From positions 1 through 64,000 of IMG/VR virus record IMGVR_UViG_3300044617_002308: DNA of 64,000 bases; one strand, given 5' to 3'. Below the pieces are notes generated by a model. It searched no databases, was not told where the DNA came from, and worked only from the letters and a program-made list of their open reading frames with translations. This document shows positions 5,320 through 57,816 of this stretch, one piece after another. This DNA is from a virus. Every line of letters begins with the position of its first letter. Position 1 is the first letter of the stretch. A program made the position numbers and the translations under genes.

Positions 5320-7491
5320 TTATTCGAGGCGCTCAGGGGTGGGCGGCATCTGGCCGTCTTCGATCGGGGCGTATTGGAGGTCTTTGGGTGGCGGTTGGTA
5401 GTTTGCGGGGATGCGCGGCATGGCGTCCTCGGGCGCGGGGGCGTCCTCGGGCGCGGGGGCGTCCTCGGGCGGTGGGGCAGGGGCGTCTTCCGTGGGTGCG
5501 GCTTCCTCGGGCGCAGCGGGTTGCCCAGCCTGCGCTTGCATGGCGGCGAGTGCCTCGGGCGGTGGCATGATGGCCAGCGCGGCCTCGGCGGCCATGGCCT
5601 CGGCCCCGAGGGCTTTGTCCACATCCTCGATGCCCATCGTTTGCAGGATGCGGTAAACGATCGGGCGGATGCGCACTTTGGGTTCGGGTGGAAGTTGCTC
5701 GTAGCCCACCAGGATGTCGAAGGCTTGCTTGTGGGCCTCCACCACATCGGAGTCCTTGCTGTTGGAGAGGAGCATTTTGACTTGGTAGGGGAGTTGGGAG
5801 AAGTCGCGGTTTTTCTCCAGCACGGCGGCGGCGTCCTCGCCCATGAGGCGCTCGGCATCGAGGGGATCGTAGTTGCGCAGGGTGAGCGCCACGCAGTCTT
5901 TGAGCACGGCCTCAAAGCCATCCACGATGTCGTAGAGCATGTTTTTGAGAAGCACATTGGCCACGCGGTCCAGAGAGCGAATGCCGGTGGCGAGGCTGGC
6001 GGCGGGGAGTCCGGCGAGGCCGTGGTCGCCCGCGGAGACGATGCCCGCCTCCAACTGCGTCACCTGCATGAGCATGTTCAGCAGGTTCTCGGAGGCTGCG
6101 GCATCGTTTGGGATCGTGATCACCTTGAAGACATCCTCGGCGGCAAAGCCCTCGCGCAGGCGGTAGGTTTTGTTCGTTCCGAATTCGATCGGCTCGCCGG
6201 CCATTCCCTCCTCGGTGGCCATGGGGTTTTCGATCTTGATGTTGCCGGAGAGCGAGGCCGCCAAATTCACGCGGTTGATGAACAAGTCACAAAACTTATG
6301 ACGATCGGCAAAAAGTTCATAAAAACCCGTCCCATACCAACGGTGCGGCACGGGCTCCATTCGGATCACGCGCAGGGGGCGCTGGCCGGTGGGCGACACA
6401 TTGTCGAGGTAGTCGTAGGCGAGGATTTGGTCGTTCTTCGTATCGACAAGGAGGGCGATCTCGTCGGCGATGCCGTCGTCTTGCAACACGACGCGCATGT
6501 AAACCTCGGCGAGTTCGCACAGCGGCAGCGCATCGCGGCTGCGGGCTTCCTCGCCCCGGAATAGCTCGGGCTTCATGCTCTCCTGCTGGCCGTCGGTGTT
6601 CGCGCTGGCGCGCAGCTTGCGGATTGCCTCGCGGGTTTGCAGGCTGTCCTTCACCGGGGCGAGCATGGCGATCACCTTGTCGAGTTCCATGTCCATGCGC
6701 ACGGCGCAGAAGTCCGCGCTGTGGATGTCTTTTTCCACCGTGGAGCAAATGAAGTCGCGGTGGTCGATGCAGGAGGCTTCGAGACCGTCGAAGGTGAGCC
6801 GGTAATGATCGTATTCCTGCTCCACCCACTCGGGAATCTCGCCCTTGACGAGGCGCACCCGCTTGTCGCGGGAGAGAACCAAGTCCTCGCCCTCGTCCAC
6901 CCACACATCGTCCTTGCGCACCACATTGCCATCGCGGGCGCGCACGGGCTGGCCCTCGCGGATCAAAATCTCGCCCTTCTTGCGCGAGCGGGAAACCCGG
7001 CGCTCCCAGGTCGTTTTCACCACCGTCTCGCCGCGAATGCAGGCCAGAGTCTCAGCCTCGCGCAGGATCGAGCGGATGCCGGCGCGTTCGATCTGGTGGC
7101 CGACATAGCGCTCGATCACGCGGGCCACCTCGTAGTCGTCGCCCTTGCCCTCCACGGTGACGCCGAGGATGGGGTTGCTGGTGAGCATGGAGTCGTAGAT
7201 GCGCGCCGCGGTGATTCGGACGAACCGCTTGGGCAGGTTGAGCGTGATGTTGGAAAGCTCAAAAATACTGCCTGGGTCTTTGCGCTCGTCCATGTTGCCC
7301 ATGTATTGCTGCATGGCGCGGTTGCGCTTCTCCAGCCAGCCGCTCTTGGAATAACTCTGCACCGCGCTGCCCATGCGCAACTTGACAAGGCGCATGAGTT
7401 CGCGCTCCTGCGCCCCGGTGAGTTTGAGCGCCCCGCGCAACGGGGTCGTGGGCGGATCGAGGCTTTCGGCGAGTTCGGGAAGTGCGGTCAT
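5320..7491 (-). CDS. Portal protein (head-tail connector)
   Basis: 723 residues from ATG at 7489-7491. Length and layout suit the large podoviral portals (P22/N4-like). The order is: an N-terminal helical part with SIFELSNITLNLPKRFVRI, a wing and stem region with VIERYVGHQIERAGIRSILREAE, charged helices, and a C-terminal tail of about 100 residues dominated by Pro/Ala/Glu (repeated EDAPAP) that is likely disordered. The portal forms the dodecameric DNA gate at the capsid vertex and docks the terminase. The gene lies directly downstream of the giant virion-protein gene. A copy of the 19-bp repeat straddles the end of that gene, 16 bp before this start. Classified by context and overall resemblance, not by a search. 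Confidence 0.8.
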   Translation of the reverse strand: MTALPELAESLDPPTTPLRGALKLTGAQERELMRLVKLRMGSAVQSYSKSGWLEKRNRAMQQYMGNMDERKDPGSIFELSNITLNLPKRFVRITAARIYDSMLTSNPILGVTVEGKGDDYEVARVIERYVGHQIERAGIRSILREAETLACIRGETVVKTTWERRVSRSRKKGEILIREGQPVRARDGNVVRKDDVWVDEGEDLVLSRDKRVRLVKGEIPEWVEQEYDHYRLTFDGLEASCIDHRDFICSTVEKDIHSADFCAVRMDMELDKVIAMLAPVKDSLQTREAIRKLRASANTDGQQESMKPELFRGEEARSRDALPLCELAEVYMRVVLQDDGIADEIALLVDTKNDQILAYDYLDNVSPTGQRPLRVIRMEPVPHRWYGTGFYELFADRHKFCDLFINRVNLAASLSGNIKIENPMATEEGMAGEPIEFGTNKTYRLREGFAAEDVFKVITIPNDAAASENLLNMLMQVTQLEAGIVSAGDHGLAGLPAASLATGIRSLDRVANVLLKNMLYDIVDGFEAVLKDCVALTLRNYDPLDAERLMGEDAAAVLEKNRDFSQLPYQVKMLLSNSKDSDVVEAHKQAFDILVGYEQLPPEPKVRIRPIVYRILQTMGIEDVDKALGAEAMAAEAALAIMPPPEALAAMQAQAGQPAAPEEAAPTEDAPAPPPEDAPAPEDAPAPEDAMPRIPANYQPPPKDLQYAPIEDGQMPPTPERLE
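5423..5476. repeat. Three 18-bp tandem repeats in the portal gene
   Basis: Units beginning GCGTCCTCGGGCGC at 5423, 5441 and 5459 (period 18). On the coding strand they specify three copies of a six-residue EDAPAP-type unit in the disordered tail of the portal. Copy number could vary by slippage without breaking the frame. Confidence 0.85.
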
Positions 7492-49198: not shown

Positions 49199-49395
49199 GC
49201 TTCGTAATTCTTGTGGGTGAGGTGCCAGTATTTGCAAAATGGGCAGCGGTAAACGCGCAGGCGCAGGTTGCGGTTGCGGCGGGCGCGCTGGAGGCCCGCG
49301 CGGTGTCTTTCCGCGCTGCTGGGGCTCGGATACCGGCGTTTTGCGGCGCATTGGCTTTCGTAGGCTCCGGGGGCGGTAAATTCGGCGGCTTTCAT
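49195..49395 (-). CDS. Small zinc-finger-like protein
   Basis: 66 residues from ATG at 49393-49395. KAAEFTAPGAYESQCAAKRRYPSP and YRCPFCKYWHLTHKNY give one CxxC with a WHLTH end, the pattern of a widespread phage mini-protein that probably binds zinc and nucleic acid. The middle is rich in Arg (ERHRAGLQRARRNRNLRLR). Confidence 0.6.
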   Translation of the reverse strand: MKAAEFTAPGAYESQCAAKRRYPSPSSAERHRAGLQRARRNRNLRLRVYRCPFCKYWHLTHKNYEA

Positions 49396-50039
49396 GGAAT
49401 GTAGGATTCTTTGAGCCAAGGATTCTCCTCGCCGATCCGCTCCAACCGCTGGGCCGTGCCGATAAATTGCTCGCCATCAAGATAAATGCTCAAGCGGCTG
49501 AACAGCCAATGGGCTGTGCGCTTGAGGGCGGCGAGTTCATCCTGCAACTCGTTGCATTTCTTCCTGTTTTCGTTCAACTGGGCTTCTTGAAACTTGAAAA
49601 GTTCCCGTCGAAATTCCAACGCCTCCCGCGCCTCGTCGCGCTCGCGCTCAAGGAGGCGGGCCACCTCAGTCGGCACCATGTATTCGCCAGAAAAAGCCAT
49701 GCGCTCGGCTTGGTTGCTTACAGGCGTATCGGCGTTTTCGTCGGCGTCCAGTTCGGCGCACAAGCGCGTGGCTTCGGCGAGGGGAAGGTGGATCGTGTCG
49801 CTCATGGCTTTTTCTGCCATCATCGGCACATCGTCGCCCATCAACCATTCTGCCGAAAAACCCGTTATACCTTGAAATAAAACAGCCTTTTCGTATTGAA
49901 GCTCTGTTTGACCGCAGGATACTTTTGTAAGCCACGAACGGCTAACGCCAGATTTATCAATTAAATAACTTGGTTTTCCCTTCGGACCAAGTTTGTGGCG
50001 CATTATCGCAAACCGCGTTTTAAGTTTTGAAACGGCCAT
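49392..50039 (-). CDS. Putative phage regulator with Cro/CI-like N-terminus
   Basis: 215 residues from ATG at 50037-50039 (1-nt overlap, TGATG). The first 70 residues, FAIMRHKLGPKGKPSYLIDKSGV...SRSWLTKVSCGQTELQYEKA...GFSAEWLMGDD, fit a Cro/CI-type helix-turn-helix domain with the usual last helix and WLxxG-like end. A long coiled coil follows (LLERERDEAREALEFRRELF). It is the only full-length HTH regulator in the window and therefore a candidate repressor for the 19-bp sites. It lacks a recognisable LexA/CI-type protease domain. Confidence 0.55.
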   Translation of the reverse strand: MAVSKLKTRFAIMRHKLGPKGKPSYLIDKSGVSRSWLTKVSCGQTELQYEKAVLFQGITGFSAEWLMGDDVPMMAEKAMSDTIHLPLAEATRLCAELDADENADTPVSNQAERMAFSGEYMVPTEVARLLERERDEAREALEFRRELFKFQEAQLNENRKKCNELQDELAALKRTAHWLFSRLSIYLDGEQFIGTAQRLERIGEENPWLKESYIP

Positions 50040-50503
50040 CACTCCAGCCCTCCTTTGCGGTTGCGCCCAGAGGCATTCCATTTTTTTGCCTCCAAAAGTT
50101 GAAGTATTGCAATGACATCGGCCACGCCGTGGACGACATGGACGATCCAGCCGTCGTCGCGCATTTTGTCGTGCCGCTCCAGTTGCTCGGGCCGGGGCTT
50201 GCAGCCTTGGGCCTTCACCTCGAAAGCCAGCGCGTGCCCGCGGAAGGCCAAGGTGAAGTCCGGCCAGCCCTCGGGGAGCAGGCTGCGCTTGTTCATGGGT
50301 GGGCAGATGAATTGCAAGCCCCTCATTCGCAGGTAGCCGGCGATTTCCTTCTGCGCGTGCTTCTCGGTTTTCTTGTTGAGTTCTTGCCGGATTTCCTCGG
50401 CGGTTTTCCCGGCGTTCGGGTGGCCCACCGCCTTGGCGTGGGACGCGCGGTCCTCGGGGGACATGCAGCGCAAGATGTTGTCGGGCAGGACTTCGGATTT
50501 CAC
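50039..50503 (-). CDS. VRR-NUC type nuclease
   Basis: 154 residues. A helical N-terminus (AKAVGHPNAGKTAEEIRQELNKK) is followed by GWPDFTLAFRGHALAFEVKAQGCKPRPEQLERHDKMRDDGW and VVHGVADVIAIL. These are the PD...ExK...Q elements of the VRR-NUC/PD-(D/E)XK family, which includes phage Holliday-junction-like and recombination nucleases. It lies in the recombination and replication block. Confidence 0.8.
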   Translation of the reverse strand: MKSEVLPDNILRCMSPEDRASHAKAVGHPNAGKTAEEIRQELNKKTEKHAQKEIAGYLRMRGLQFICPPMNKRSLLPEGWPDFTLAFRGHALAFEVKAQGCKPRPEQLERHDKMRDDGWIVHVVHGVADVIAILQLLEAKKWNASGRNRKGGLE

Positions 50504-52366: not shown

Positions 52367-53179
52367 TCAGGCGGCTTTCGCCCAGCGGGGCAGGGTGATG
52401 GTTTCGATTTCCTGCGAGTAACCAGCCCACTCGTTGGTCTTGAGGCAGAGTTCCAGCAGGTCGAGGTGCCGGTTGTTGCGCTCGCGGCCCAACGCGATCG
52501 ATTCCTCGTCGAGGCAGTAAACAGCCACCTCGTAAGGGGCGGCCTTCTCCACGGCGATGAAGAGGAAGTAACTGGCTCCCACCAGGTCCATGTAGAATGC
52601 GGCCTGTTGCGCGTAGCCCCATTGAGCGATCGCGCGGGCAAAAGCATCCGGGCTCGCATCGTCGGTGGTCTTGATGTCCGCGATCGTGGTGAGCCCTTGC
52701 TCGTCCACGGTCACGCCATCGAGGCGGCCTTTCAGCAATAGATCGCTGGTGAGGCTGCGGCGCTTGAACACGCTCACTTCCTTCTGCGCTCCCGCAAGCA
52801 CGGCGCTGGCGCGGGGGTGGGCGAGCACCTTCGCCGCGGCTTCGGTGAGCGCGGTGGCTTGGCCTCTGTCAATGATCGGGGCGGTTTGTGCGTCGCGCCA
52901 TTCCTTCCCGGCTTTGCTACGGAAGTCCATGTCCTCGGGTTTCACGACGAACGAACCGGCGAGTTTCTCGGGCTCCAGGCACGCGCGGTGCAGGAGGGTG
53001 CCGAAGATCATGGCGGGCGTGGGTTCCTGCTTCGGTCCCGTCACCCGCGCATGGTAGTGCGCGGGCGAGCGGCCCATGAGTTTGAGGTTGCTGATGTTCA
53101 CTCCGGGGGCTTGGCGGTAGATGTCCTCCGGCAGGTTGTGGAAGACGCCCTCGGCGTTGGGTTCAAAGAGGTCGCTCAT
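52367..53179 (-). CDS. RecE-like PD-(D/E)XK exonuclease
   Basis: 270 residues. NISNLKLMGRSPAHYHARV...AMIFGTLLHRACLEPE in the first third, then LLKGRLDGVTVDEQGLTTIADIKTTDDASPDAFARAIAQWGYAQQAAFY with the catalytic D...D-x-K and the following Q. This is the layout of the RecE C-terminal / DUF3799 nuclease. It would chew one strand from DNA ends and hand the single strand to the RecT protein made just upstream; the start overlaps the recT stop as TAATG. Confidence 0.85.
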   Translation of the reverse strand: MSDLFEPNAEGVFHNLPEDIYRQAPGVNISNLKLMGRSPAHYHARVTGPKQEPTPAMIFGTLLHRACLEPEKLAGSFVVKPEDMDFRSKAGKEWRDAQTAPIIDRGQATALTEAAAKVLAHPRASAVLAGAQKEVSVFKRRSLTSDLLLKGRLDGVTVDEQGLTTIADIKTTDDASPDAFARAIAQWGYAQQAAFYMDLVGASYFLFIAVEKAAPYEVAVYCLDEESIALGRERNNRHLDLLELCLKTNEWAGYSQEIETITLPRWAKAA

Positions 53180-54285
53180 TATTTGGCCTCCTCGATGTTG
53201 GCGATGATGTAGTCGATGTCCTTGAGCGCCTCGGCGGCGACATGGTCGGTGAGTTCCGAGAGCGTCGCGGCCTTCTTGGCGGCGGGGACGATTTTCTTGA
53301 GCGCCTTCATGAATTCGGCTTCGGGAACCGAAGCGTCGGAGAGAGCGAGTGCTAAATTTTTTTGCGGCGTGTCGGCTTCAAAAACCGGAAGCTCGTCTTC
53401 GGCGATCGGGGCCGCGGGCTTGCTGGCGCGGGGCGGCGGCGCGGCGCTGGCGCTGGCCTCCGGCGTGTCCATCGGGATCTCGTCCATTTCCATCTCCAGG
53501 GCCGGAGCCGGTGCGGCGGGGCGGGTGAAGACGGGTTTGGCCTGCGCAGCCTTCTCCACCACCATGCCCTGAATCGCGGGAAGTTGATCGGCGTCCTTGT
53601 CCAGCGCGTCGCGATATTCCGAGGAGATCGGGAGCCATTTTGAGAGGCGGCGGAAAACCGTCTTCTTCGCCATCTCGTCAAAGTCCGTCACCCACGGGCC
53701 AGAGTTGCCGGCGCGGCTGCGGTTGCGGATCGCCTCCACTTCCTCCAGCGTCATCACCTCGGCCTTCTCCGTCCCGTCCTTGAACCGGCAGAGCGCGTAG
53801 TAGGCATAGGCACGGCCGCGTGGGCGCTTGAAGTCGATCTGGTGCCGCCCGATCTGCCCGCGGTCGTAGTCGAAAATGTCGTTCTCGCAGATTTTATCCG
53901 CGTGGACATTGCTGATCTCCCCGGTGCGCATGGCCAGTTCCAGCAGGCCCATGTAGCTGATGATGAGTTGGCACTCGGTCACGCCGCGTTTGCGGTTATC
54001 AAACGGAATGAGGTAGGCGCGGCGTCCGTCCGGTTCGATGCCGCACTGCGAGAGCGTGAGGAGCGAGTTGAAGAAGCTCGCCTGATCGCAGTCCGCCAGC
54101 TTCGGCGTGCGCGTCATCGCGGTGATCGCCACGCGAATGAACCGCTCTGCGGGCAAATGTTTCGGCAAGGCCGCGGTGATGGCGTTCTTGAATTGTTCCC
54201 CCTCCAGCAAGCTGCGGAGGCCTTTTTTGGGCTGGCTGTTGACAACCGCCCCGTTTTGGGTAGTGATTTCGGTGTTAGGATTCAT
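53179..54285 (-). CDS. recT: RecT single-strand annealing protein
   Basis: 368 residues from ATG at 54283-54285. LLEGEQFKNAITAALPKHLPAERFIRVAITAMTRTPKLADCDQASFFNSLLTLSQCGIEPDGRRAYLIPF and IISYMGLLELAMRTGEISNVHADKIC are hallmark RecT sequences. The C-terminus is extended with an Ala/Pro-rich part and a helical end. It binds and anneals single strands in phage recombination with the adjacent exonuclease. The mRNA leader carries a strong GC hairpin 16 nt before the ATG, and a 19-bp repeat lies further upstream. Confidence 0.92.
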   Translation of the reverse strand: MNPNTEITTQNGAVVNSQPKKGLRSLLEGEQFKNAITAALPKHLPAERFIRVAITAMTRTPKLADCDQASFFNSLLTLSQCGIEPDGRRAYLIPFDNRKRGVTECQLIISYMGLLELAMRTGEISNVHADKICENDIFDYDRGQIGRHQIDFKRPRGRAYAYYALCRFKDGTEKAEVMTLEEVEAIRNRSRAGNSGPWVTDFDEMAKKTVFRRLSKWLPISSEYRDALDKDADQLPAIQGMVVEKAAQAKPVFTRPAAPAPALEMEMDEIPMDTPEASASAAPPPRASKPAAPIAEDELPVFEADTPQKNLALALSDASVPEAEFMKALKKIVPAAKKAATLSELTDHVAAEALKDIDYIIANIEEAK

Positions 54286-54885: not shown

Positions 54886-55143
54886 TTAGGCCGTGCCGCC
54901 TGGGGTAAACGCCGCCTGCGCTTCTTCAAGAGAAGCGAAGTAGGCTTTGAGACTTTTGAAGTTGACGATGCGGGCCGCTTTGCGCATACCCGGTTCCCGA
55001 AGAGAAACGCTGCGGACAGGGGCGTTGTAGTTGTTCCGCTTGGAGGGAACACACAGGCGCTCCAGCACGCTGCGTTTCAGGCCAGTGTGCGGACACACGC
55101 CACGGCTTGGCAGGCGGATGTAGAGGGGTTCGATGTCTTTCAT
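54886..55143 (-). CDS. Excisionase-like / MerR-type DNA-binding protein
   Basis: 85 residues from ATG at 55141-55143. YIRLPSRGVCPHTGLKRSVLERL, NAPVRSVSLREPGMRKAARIVNFKSLKAYFASL matches a small family (PHTGLSRSxLxxL...PVxSxSLR...RLIxxxSLLxYL) found in many phages and islands, read as a helix-turn-helix with a wing. Position near the integrase makes it a good recombination-directionality-factor candidate. A 13-bp palindrome shared with the regulator promoter lies 18 bp before its ATG, so the ribbon-helix-helix proteins may control it. Confidence 0.6.
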   Translation of the reverse strand: MKDIEPLYIRLPSRGVCPHTGLKRSVLERLCVPSKRNNYNAPVRSVSLREPGMRKAARIVNFKSLKAYFASLEEAQAAFTPGGTA

Positions 55144-55301
55144 TGGCGCAGTTTCGCGTCGGGTGCATTGCACCTTTTTGCCAAAAAAAATCGGAGCAGG
55201 GCGCTGGGGTTGCTACCAGCTGCGGCAGCGAGTTTTTCAAGTTGCCTTTTCAGGCGACGATCCACGGCGAAGCTAGCGACGACGGTTGCCTGTTTTTCCA
55301 T
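55140..55301 (-). CDS. Ribbon-helix-helix protein 2
   Basis: 53 residues from ATG at 55299-55301, with AAGGA ahead (about 16 nt). ATVVASFAVDRRLKRQLEKLAAAAGSNPSALLRFFLAKR is a short strand followed by two helices, the Arc/CopG pattern. It overlaps the end of the first regulator gene. Probably a DNA-binding repressor. Confidence 0.55.
   Translation of the reverse strand: MEKQATVVASFAVDRRLKRQLEKLAAAAGSNPSALLRFFLAKRCNAPDAKLRQ
55162..55174. promoter_or_regulatory. 13-bp palindrome GGTGCATTGCACC (copy 2)
   Basis: Exact match to the palindrome in the regulator promoter at 55540-55552. It lies 18 bp before the ATG of the excisionase-like gene, inside the end of the second ribbon-helix-helix gene. 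Confidence 0.75.
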
Positions 55302-55524
55302 GTGTTGTTTTTTTCCTTTTTTGTTGCTGTTCGATTTCATCGGCGATCGTTCTATAATCTTCCGCCGTGAGTTCAACATGTTGGAGTTCTTCCATCAAAA
55401 TTCGGTTCACCAAGCCGGTTGGAGTGATATTTTGAACTTTGGCCTCTTTTTCAATTTGGTGTTTCAAGGCCCGTTCCAACCGCACCACCAGTTGGGTTTT
55501 GTTAATGTCGGGGCTGTTAGGCAT
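55273..55524 (-). CDS. Ribbon-helix-helix protein 1 (Arc/CopG-like)
   Basis: 83 residues from ATG at 55522-55524. KTQLVVRLERALKHQIEKEAKVQNITPTGLVNRILMEELQ gives the strand-helix-helix fold of Arc/CopG-type regulators, followed by a charged tail (EQQQKRKKTTHGKTGNRRR). First gene after the promoter at 55531-55558, whose spacer contains a 13-bp palindrome, the classic design of an autoregulated repressor. Confidence 0.7.
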   Translation of the reverse strand: MPNSPDINKTQLVVRLERALKHQIEKEAKVQNITPTGLVNRILMEELQHVELTAEDYRTIADEIEQQQKRKKTTHGKTGNRRR

Positions 55525-55530
55525 GGAGGT

Positions 55531-55558
55531 AGAATACAAGGTGCATTGCACCCGTCAA
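55531..55558 (-). promoter_or_regulatory. Promoter with operator palindrome in the spacer
   Basis: Minus strand: -35 TTGACG (55553-55558), 16-bp spacer containing the perfect palindrome GGTGCAATGCACC (55540-55552), -10 TATTCT (55531-55536), ATG 6 bp further on. A repressor on the palindrome would block polymerase directly. Confidence 0.75.
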
Positions 55559-55615
55559 TGGATATTTGAAAAAAAATTCAATAGGGCGTTCACCTACCAG
55601 ACAAAAAACTATTGA

Positions 55616-55670
55616 CACCCGCATAAACAAAGGCGCAGCGGGCTAAAAAATATTTTCACCCGCTTAAACA
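55616..55670. repeat. Pair of 14-bp direct repeats in the regulatory gap
   Basis: CACCCGCATAAACA (55616-55629) and CACCCGCTTAAACA (55657-55670), 41 bp apart and differing at one base, each followed by a GC-rich stretch. They lie in the 239-bp gap (55525-55763) between the regulator promoter and the membrane-protein gene. They are possible binding sites for a phage regulator, Xis or the integrase arm domain. Confidence 0.5.
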
Positions 55671-56360: not shown

Positions 56361-56473
56361 GGAAGGCAATGGTAGGTTTCAAAAACTTTCCGGGAAGAAT
56401 TTTGAAAGAAAACTATCCTTCGCCAAGTGCTTTTATTGCTGCTATGTGCAACAGATGCATCAGACGCCAGAAT

Positions 56474-56483
56474 TGTTGCCAGT
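56474..56483 (+). repeat. TGTTGCCAGT repeat, copy 1 (left of attP core)
   Basis: One of three exact 10-bp copies around the attachment site; likely an integrase or excisionase arm site. Confidence 0.5.
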
Positions 56484-56535
56484 CCAAAATAAAAACATTG
56501 ATAAAACAAATACTTATGTAATGATAAAAGCACCC

Positions 56536-56563
56536 GTGGGTTCGAATCCCACCCTCTCCGCCA
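56536..56563 (+). other. attP core: tRNA 3'-end sequence
   Basis: GTGGGTTCGAATCCCAC (T arm) then CCTCTCCG and CCA: the last 28 nt of a tRNA, with a T stem of 5 bp and an acceptor 3' strand that would pair with GGAGAGG. G at the discriminator position and the acceptor sequence fit tRNA-Ser. No 5' half exists in the window, so this is not a tRNA gene. It is the segment a tRNA-targeting integrase leaves intact on the phage. The integrase starts 93 bp to the right. Confidence 0.85.
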
Positions 56564-56625
56564 TGCCTCTTCCCTCTAGTGTTGATGCACCAGAAACAAT
56601 AAAAACACATAAAAAAATAGGTGAC

Positions 56626-56647
56626 TGTTGCCAGTGATGTTGCCAGT
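56626..56647 (+). repeat. TGTTGCCAGT repeats, copies 2 and 3 (right of attP core)
   Basis: Exact copies at 56626-56635 and 56638-56647 (period 12), between attP and the integrase ATG. Together with the left copy they resemble P and P' arm sites, and might also let the integrase repress its own gene. Confidence 0.5.
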
Positions 56648-56655
56648 ATTTAGGC

Positions 56656-57816
56656 ATGGCTAGCGTAAGAAAAAAGCGGGCTTCGGCGTATTGGTTTGGA
56701 TGCTTTGTGATGCCGGACGGGAGGCGGGTGCAACGCTCAACCAAGTCAAAAGACAAAATGGAGGCTCTTCAAATTGCCCTGACTTGGGAGAAGGCGGCGC
56801 GCAAACGGGTGACGGTGGAGCAGTCAAAAAAAGTTGTCGCGAGCATTGTGAAGCTCGTCCACGGCGATGTGGTTTCCGAGGAGACGGTGAGAACCTATTT
56901 CCTGCGTTGGGTGCAGAGGAAGACGATCGAGGTGGGCAAGAACACGGCGGATCGCTACCAGAACTGCCTGGATAGTTTTTCGGAATATCTCGGAACCAAA
57001 GCGGACGGGCCGCTGGCCGAGGTGCAGGCGACACAGGTGGCGCAGTGGCGGGACGGCTTGGCCAAGAAGCTGGCGGCGGGAACCGTGAATGTTTATTTGA
57101 AAGTGGTGCGCTCGGCGTTCCGCGATGCCCATGCCGAGGGCGCAATCACCGAGTCGCCGGTGGGCGCGATCAAACTGCTCAAGCGTTCGGTGGCGGAGAA
57201 AAGCGCGGCGGCTTCGTCGCGGCGGGCGTTCACTGCGGACGAGTTGAAAAAGACGGCCGCCATCATTCCCGAGGACTCCGAGTGGCGCGGGATGTTCCTT
57301 GCAGGGCTCTACACGGGCCAAAGGCTCTCGGATATTGCCACCATGCAGAAAGGCGAGTTGAAAAGCGGTTGGTGGCGTTTCCGCGTGAAAAAAACCGGAC
57401 GCTCGGCTGCGGTGCCGCTTGCGAAGCCGCTTGCAGAGTGGCTCGCCAAACACTCCAAAAAAACGATCGGGCCAAATGTTTTTCCTGCGGCGGTGAAAAC
57501 CTTGGAGCGTTCCAAAGGAACTCCAGGAACATTATCAAACCAGTTTCGCCGGTATTTGGAACTGGCCGGCGTGGTGGAATATCGCATGCACCGCTCGAAA
57601 GGCGTTGGCCGCGACGGCAAGCGCTCCACGGGCGGGCTCTCTTTCCATTGCCTGCGCCACACCACCAACTCGCTCCTGAAGGCCGCTGGCGTGCAGGAAA
57701 GCGTGGCGATGGACTTCGTAGGCCATGAGAGCGAGCAGATCTCCCGCCTCTACACGCACGTTCCCGAGGAGTCGCTGCTGGCTGCGGCGAGGAAGCTGGA
57801 GGATGTGCTGGGGTGA
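56656..57816 (+). CDS. int: Tyrosine integrase
   Basis: 386 residues. N-terminal arm-binding strand region (MASVRKKRASAYWFGCFVMPDGRR), SAM-like core-binding domain (TADRYQNCLDSFSEYLG...YLKVVRSAFRDAHAEGAI), and a catalytic domain with Arg I in LYTGQRLSDIAT, the Lys/beta region, HCLRHTTNS (HxxRH), VGHES, and the nucleophile Tyr in ISRLYTHV. It inserts the phage at a tRNA 3' end via the adjacent attP. The gene is one of two plus-strand genes and is transcribed away from the regulatory region. Confidence 0.95.
   Translation: MASVRKKRASAYWFGCFVMPDGRRVQRSTKSKDKMEALQIALTWEKAARKRVTVEQSKKVVASIVKLVHGDVVSEETVRTYFLRWVQRKTIEVGKNTADRYQNCLDSFSEYLGTKADGPLAEVQATQVAQWRDGLAKKLAAGTVNVYLKVVRSAFRDAHAEGAITESPVGAIKLLKRSVAEKSAAASSRRAFTADELKKTAAIIPEDSEWRGMFLAGLYTGQRLSDIATMQKGELKSGWWRFRVKKTGRSAAVPLAKPLAEWLAKHSKKTIGPNVFPAAVKTLERSKGTPGTLSNQFRRYLELAGVVEYRMHRSKGVGRDGKRSTGGLSFHCLRHTTNSLLKAAGVQESVAMDFVGHESEQISRLYTHVPEESLLAAARKLEDVLG

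What the first reader, a model, noticed from the sequence alone, without database searches (positions are those of the whole stretch)
55162..55552. Ribbon-helix-helix lysogeny switch with two identical 13-bp operators
GGTGCATTGCACC occurs twice, exactly. One copy lies in the spacer of a good promoter (TTGACG, 16 bp, TATTCT) for two ribbon-helix-helix genes; the other lies just before the excisionase-like gene. This is a compact autoregulated circuit that could decide between integration and excision.
Basis: partly seen in the sequence, partly recalled or inferred. Interest (0 to 1): 0.62.

Follow-up and report, generated by a model that had tools for sequence, protein, structure and literature searches.

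The report
Phage double ribbon-helix-helix operator cassette
Two small overlapping phage genes, probably DNA-binding repressors, carry the same 13-letter palindrome in their own promoter and again inside the second gene; both copies are unchanged in four related phages with other neighbouring genes, which points to a self-regulating early-gene switch of a familiar general type.

Summary
The two palindromes are real, exact and meaningful. GGTGCAWTGCACC occurs exactly twice in the 71-kb record, and exactly twice in each of four related virus records found in IMG/VR, always at the same two places: in the -35/-10 spacer of the first RHH-like gene, and about 350 bp further on. The second copy is not intergenic: it lies inside the coding sequence of the second RHH-like gene, where all five codons it touches are unchanged while 18 of 23 other conserved-residue codons vary synonymously. 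So both copies are under DNA-level selection. The 13-bp, 4-5-4 layout (GGTG-CAWTG-CACC) has the geometry described for the RHH repressor AmrZ, and RHH protein MobC autorepresses from a palindrome between its own -35 and -10. Most likely the first gene (perhaps with the second) encodes an autorepressor of the early operon, which continues into a small, possibly xis, gene and recT/exonuclease. The integration/excision "decision" is inference: RHH assignment rests on weak profile hits, the window's Xis-like gene has none, integrases and downstream genes differ among relatives, and no binding data exist. A new, well-conserved variant of a known kind of circuit; moderate interest.

The parts
55540..55552 (.). 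Palindrome copy A (operator candidate) in the promoter spacer of RHH1; half-sites GGTG/CACC with 5-bp linker
   Evidence: identical place in L001-L004; exactly two copies per record
55553..55558 (-). -35 hexamer TTGACG
   Evidence: TTGAC(C)/TTGGC(G) in relatives
55531..55536 (-). -10 hexamer TATTCT; 6 nt before ATG, so the RHH1 mRNA is predicted leaderless; no Shine-Dalgarno
   Evidence: same spacing in all five records
55273..55524 (-). RHH1, 83 aa, Arc-like ribbon-helix-helix protein (predicted DNA-reading strand QLVVRL, invariant)
   Evidence: phrog_582 Arc-like repressor E=3.5e-4, 1e-3 and 2.9e-3 in relatives; alignment A1; weak Foldseek hits to CopG helices
55140..55301 (-). RHH2, 53 aa, CopG-like ribbon-helix-helix protein; overlaps RHH1 by 29 nt
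   Evidence: Pfam RHH_1 E=0.0026, below cut-off; phrog_7325 CopG-like E=3.5e-4, 5.3e-5 in L002; profile-profile RHH1/RHH2 E=5e-5 in RHH register
55162..55174 (.). Palindrome copy B (operator candidate), inside RHH2 coding sequence (R-C-N-A-P codons), 18 nt before the downstream ATG
55183..55190 (-). T8 tract (FFL codons TTT TTT TTG) in RHH2, invariant in all five records, 8 nt upstream of copy B; role unknown
54886..55143 (-). Small Xis/AlpA-looking protein, 85 aa; start overlaps RHH2 stop (ATGA); homologue only in L001
   Evidence: by eye only; no profile hit; L001 homologue at 6388-6672
53179..54285 (-). RecT-like annealing protein, downstream early gene
   Evidence: RecT E=1.8e-45
52367..53179 (-). 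RecE/exonuclease VIII-like PDDEXK nuclease, downstream early gene
   Evidence: DUF3799 E=5.8e-30; phrog_412 E=2e-71
55585..55594 (.). Imperfect palindrome upstream of the promoter (GGTGAACGCC on minus strand; GGTGATCACC in L002-L004), possible further site
   Evidence: alignment

Best explanation
The region is the head of a phage early operon controlled by its own first product(s). RHH1 (an Arc-like ribbon-helix-helix protein), alone or with RHH2, binds as a pair of dimers to the 13-bp operator GGTG-CAWTG-CACC. Copy A lies between the -35 and -10, so binding blocks RNA polymerase and represses RHH1-RHH2 and the co-directional genes behind them (a small DNA-binding/Xis-like gene, then recT and exonuclease). 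Copy B, the same operator inside RHH2, is a second binding site: it tightens repression by cooperative binding or looping, or acts as a roadblock so that downstream genes such as xis are shut off more firmly than the repressor genes. Shown: the two sites, their exact conservation at DNA level, their restriction to this cassette, the gene overlaps and the promoter geometry. Inferred: that the RHH proteins bind the sites, that binding represses, the role of copy B, and any effect on integration and excision.
For: Four relatives in IMG/VR (RHH1 76-86% identical) carry both copies exactly in the same two places. Each of the five records holds exactly two copies; no one-mismatch copy lies elsewhere in them. 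Copy B codons are 5/5 invariant while 18 of 23 other conserved-residue codons of RHH2 vary (hypergeometric 0.0026), and RHH2 is only 66% identical in DNA to L002-L004 just upstream. The codon choice AGG-TGC-AAT-GCA has probability about 0.001 under local codon usage. Both proteins match RHH profiles, weakly but consistently in several members, and align to each other in RHH register. [quoted passage not shown] Arc and CopG have 5-base linkers (same paper); [quoted passage not shown] MobC of RA3, an RHH protein, autorepresses by binding a palindrome between its own -35 and -10 (PMC4175270).
Against: No binding or expression data. RHH1 has no Pfam hit, the AlphaFold2 monomer model has a helix where the strand should be, and no Foldseek match was significant. 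No promoter can be recognised at copy B. Copy spacing is 378, 381 and 373 bp (36.0, 36.3, 35.5 turns), so there is no fixed helical phase for looping. Only five records, effectively three lineages, are known.
Confidence: 0.68

Rival explanations
1. Only copy A is a regulatory operator (plain autorepression). Copy B is a binding site with another job, for example an anchor or decoy that buffers repressor level, or a cassette boundary or recombination sequence by which the RHH1-RHH2 unit moves between phages.
For: Sequence downstream of RHH2 diverges soon after copy B and the downstream genes differ between L001, L003 and L002/L004; no promoter at copy B; no fixed helical phase between the copies.
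Against: Homology extends about 170 bp upstream of copy A, so the copies do not bound the conserved block. A boundary sequence would not need to be a perfect palindrome in the promoter spacer.
Confidence: 0.2
2. Excision switch: RHH proteins bound at copy B control xis separately from copy A, and so decide between integration and excision.
For: The cassette is within a few genes of the integrase in 5/5 records, and a small Xis-like or HTH_17 gene lies downstream on the same strand in 5/5, with different sequences (excisionase PHROGs hits for L003 and L004).
Against: The window and L001 Xis-like proteins have no profile hit. In L002 and L004 two unrelated genes separate copy B from the HTH gene. 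No independent xis promoter is seen. In the window int is inverted relative to L001, so the RHH cassette need not sit beside int in the prophage.
Confidence: 0.2
3. The palindromes are sites for another protein (host regulator, Int/Xis arm sites), not for the RHH proteins.
For: Binding partner untested; the sites are near an integrase.
Against: The sites accompany the RHH cassette and are unchanged across differing integrases and different downstream genes, and occur nowhere else in these phages. They lie about 1 kb from the tRNA-like attP core (56536-56563), which has its own flanking GTTGCCAGT repeats.
Confidence: 0.1
4. Copy B (with the T8 tract) is an RNA hairpin governing translation coupling or termination rather than a DNA operator.
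For: GGUGC-AAU-GCACC can fold, and the T8 tract is invariant.
Against: With the palindrome held fixed, flank shuffles give z of 0.12, -0.65, -1.82, 0.43 and -1.06, so there is no consistent surrounding structure. The same sequence sits upstream of the transcription start in copy A, where it is not transcribed from its own promoter.
Confidence: 0.07

Closest known systems
MobC of plasmid RA3 (RHH autorepressor; PMC4175270)
   Same: RHH protein, first gene of its operon, palindromic operator between its own -35 and -10
   Different: Larger protein (176 aa), conjugation role, imperfect 8+8 palindrome with unrelated sequence; no intragenic twin operator was mentioned in the passages read
CopG of pMV158/pLS1
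   Same: Small RHH autorepressor of a polycistronic operon; 13-bp symmetric operator element; RHH2 matches a CopG-like PHROG
   Different: One RHH gene, plasmid copy control; operator sequence not compared here
Arc/Mnt of phage P22
   Same: Phage-encoded RHH repressors; RHH1 matches the Arc-like PHROG, and its predicted reading residues Q-V-R recall Arc Q-N-R (latter from memory)
   Different: Arc and Mnt are not one overlapping operon with twin operators ahead of xis/recT (from general knowledge)
AmrZ of Pseudomonas aeruginosa (PMC3325190)
   Same: RHH autorepressor, dimer-of-dimers on two half-sites 5 bp apart, with two sites at its own gene
   Different: Both AmrZ sites are upstream; cellular regulator; GGC half-sites
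lac operator O2 type intragenic auxiliary operator (general knowledge)
   Same: A second copy of the operator within a coding sequence of the regulated operon
   Different: Unrelated helix-turn-helix repressor; here no fixed helical phasing across relatives

Membership tests
Ribbon-helix-helix superfamily (RHH1) | Significant match to an RHH profile | tested here: inconclusive
   phrog_582 Arc-like E=3.5e-4, residues 8-53, repeated in two relatives; no Pfam or NCBIfam RHH hit
Ribbon-helix-helix superfamily (RHH1) | Strand-helix-helix fold as a dimer | tested here: inconclusive
   Monomer model only: helices 9-30 and 35-48, no strand; CopG 1ea4 TMt 0.70 over 35 columns but E=6.2
Ribbon-helix-helix superfamily (RHH2) | Match to an RHH profile | tested here: inconclusive
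   Pfam RHH_1 18.1 bits against cut-off 20.5; phrog_7325 CopG-like E=5e-5 to 2e-3 in four members; model extended N-terminus plus helices 15-28 and 32-44
RHH autorepressor operon | Palindromic operator overlapping the promoter of the RHH gene | tested here: met
   Copy A in the 16-17 bp spacer in 5/5 records
[quoted passage not shown]
   GGTG-CAWTG-CACC, compared with AmrZ and linkers quoted for Arc and CopG; which bases are really contacted is not known
RHH autorepressor operon | Protein binds its operator and represses | not testable with these tools
   Needs gel shift and reporter
Phage excisionase (downstream gene 54886-55143) | Match to an excisionase or HTH_17/AlpA profile | tested here: not met
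   0 families for the window protein and its L001 homologue; L003 and L004 analogues do match HTH_17 and excisionase PHROGs
Type II toxin-antitoxin operon with RHH antitoxin | A toxin gene next to the RHH gene | tested here: not met
   No toxin profile; the neighbour is a second RHH-like gene and the next gene differs among relatives

The most novel reading that the evidence does not exclude
A mobile two-gene RHH regulatory cassette carrying its own pair of identical operators, one embedded in the coding sequence of the second repressor, is plugged ahead of different early genes in different phages, so that repressor occupancy at the intragenic site gates the downstream genes (xis, recombination) independently of the repressor genes.
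Probability: 0.25. Interest if true: 0.6.

Novelty: new variant of a known kind. Interest (0 to 1): 0.42.

Why it matters
It is a small self-contained regulatory cassette from uncultured phages whose operator can be named to the base. The intragenic operator is preserved at codon level, which is uncommon and directly testable, and the cassette is shared by phages with different integrases and early genes. It gives a predicted specificity (GGTG half-sites) for two uncharacterised RHH-like proteins. If copy B gates the downstream genes, it would be a compact way of setting a different threshold for repressor and effector genes in one transcript.

Tried and rejected
RNA hairpin role of copy B: rejected with flank-shuffle controls. 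Slippage at the T8 tract fusing RHH2 to the downstream frame: that frame is open in the window and L002-L004 but closed by a stop in L001, so not conserved. Toxin-antitoxin pair: no toxin. Promoter at copy B for xis: no -10 recognisable on the minus strand. Strict-phase DNA looping: spacing differs among relatives. Search for cassettes elsewhere: none in phages or plasmids, none in genome contigs with RHH1 or the integrase, and only the same four in viral contigs by protein (RHH1, RHH2) and by operator pair. One more promoter-like copy (L014) is a single site inside an unrelated ORF, about the number expected by chance. PDB sequence searches gave nothing useful. Host phylum could not be established.

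Full report
What was claimed.

Observation. Both copies are exact, at 55162-55174 and 55540-55552. They are the only copies in the 71,267-base virus record, the next best site having two mismatches. A repeated odd palindrome with 6-bp arms appears somewhere in 65 of 300 dinucleotide shuffles, but within 400 bp in only 2. The promoter TTGACG-16-TATTCT is there, although promoter-like matches as such are no more frequent than in shuffled sequence. On the minus strand the genes are RHH1 (55524-55273, 83 aa), RHH2 (55301-55140, 53 aa, overlapping RHH1 by 29 nt) and an 85-aa protein (55143-54886, overlapping RHH2 by ATGA). Two points were not in the finding. Copy B lies inside RHH2, coding for R-C-N-A-P, so it is not in an intergenic promoter. 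RHH1's ATG falls where transcription should start, six bases after the -10 and with no Shine-Dalgarno, so its mRNA is probably leaderless.

Conservation. A protein search of IMG/VR with RHH1 gave four relatives (L001-L004; RHH1 76-86% identical, depending on the length compared). All four hold both palindromes in the same two places. Each of the five records has exactly two copies and no one-mismatch copy elsewhere. Scans with the operator pair, the copy B element and RHH2 return only these records. In copy A the spacer, the -10 region and the six-base distance to ATG are kept, while the -35 and the flanks vary. In copy B the five codons AGG-TGC-AAT-GCA-CCC are invariant, whereas among the other RHH2 codons with an unchanged residue 18 of 23 vary synonymously (hypergeometric 0.0026); the DNA just upstream is only 66% identical between the window and L002-L004. 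AGG, AAT and GCA are minority codons in this phage, and the chosen set has probability about 0.001 under local usage. These phylogenetic counts rest on about three independent lineages. I take this as good evidence that both copies are DNA sites under selection.

Proteins. RHH1 matches the PHROGs Arc-like repressor family (E 3.5e-4, and 1e-3 to 3e-3 in relatives), and RHH2 the CopG-like family (E 5e-5 to 2e-3) and Pfam RHH_1 just under its cut-off. Profile-profile comparison aligns RHH1 and RHH2 in the RHH register (E 5e-5). The structure models are monomers on five sequences: RHH2 shows the expected two helices, RHH1 shows a helix where the strand should be, and Foldseek gives only weak CopG-type matches. 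RHH membership is therefore likely but not proven. By register, the predicted DNA-facing residues are Q11, V13 and R15 in RHH1, invariant in all five, and less conserved small residues in RHH2; I therefore favour RHH1 as the sequence reader (inference).

Context. The 85-aa protein has no profile hit and a homologue only in L001. In L003 an HTH_17/excisionase-like gene follows RHH2 directly. In L002 and L004 two unrelated genes intervene before an HTH_17-type gene. Integrases lie upstream in all five records but differ (those of the window and L001 are 64% identical), and RecT and exonuclease genes lie downstream in the window and L001. The constant part is thus the RHH1-RHH2 cassette with its two palindromes and about 170 bp upstream; what it controls varies.

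Mechanism. The 13-bp site splits into GGTG-CAWTG-CACC. [quoted passage not shown]), and the same paper quotes five-base linkers for Arc and CopG. MobC of RA3 autorepresses by binding a palindrome between its own -35 and -10 (PMC4175270). Copy A therefore most likely makes RHH1, with or without RHH2, an autorepressor of an early operon. Copy B would be a second operator acting by cooperative binding, looping or roadblock. Strict helical phasing is absent (373, 378, 381 bp), no promoter is visible there, and RNA structure is not supported once the palindrome itself is held constant. The effect on integration and excision is plausible from position only.

Verdict. The feature is real, conserved and probably functional; it is a new variant of a known kind of circuit. 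The lysogeny-decision claim remains unproven.

Noticed in passing
window 56474-57800 against L001 3713-5034: The attP core plus integrase block is inverted between two close relatives while both flanks stay collinear; the junction at the int 3' end is within 26 bp. The integrase faces away from the RHH operon in the window but the same way in L001.
   Followed up: partly
window 56466-56483, 56536-56563, 56630-56647: tRNA 3'-end sequence (GTGGGTTCGAATCCCACCCTCTCCGCCA) flanked by two GTTGCCAGT-type repeats just upstream of int: a likely attP with arm-type repeats. L001, L002 and L004 have different tRNA 3' ends next to their integrases.
   Followed up: partly
window 55183-55190: A T8 tract in RHH2 (TTT TTT TTG) is invariant in all five records although the other codons drift; reason unknown.
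   Followed up: partly
window 55585-55594: A second, different imperfect palindrome (GGTGATCACC in L002-L004, GGTGAACGCC here) upstream of the RHH promoter.
   Followed up: no
window about 55640-55667 (minus strand): TTTAAGCGGGTGAAAATATTTTTT upstream of the promoter is strongly conserved, with a GCGGGTGTCAA...TTTTTT repeat about 45 bp further on; possible further regulatory sites.
   Followed up: no
window 49392-50081, minus: A protein with a weak match to phage transcriptional repressors (phrog_2328, E 0.027), a candidate separate lysogeny repressor.
   Followed up: no
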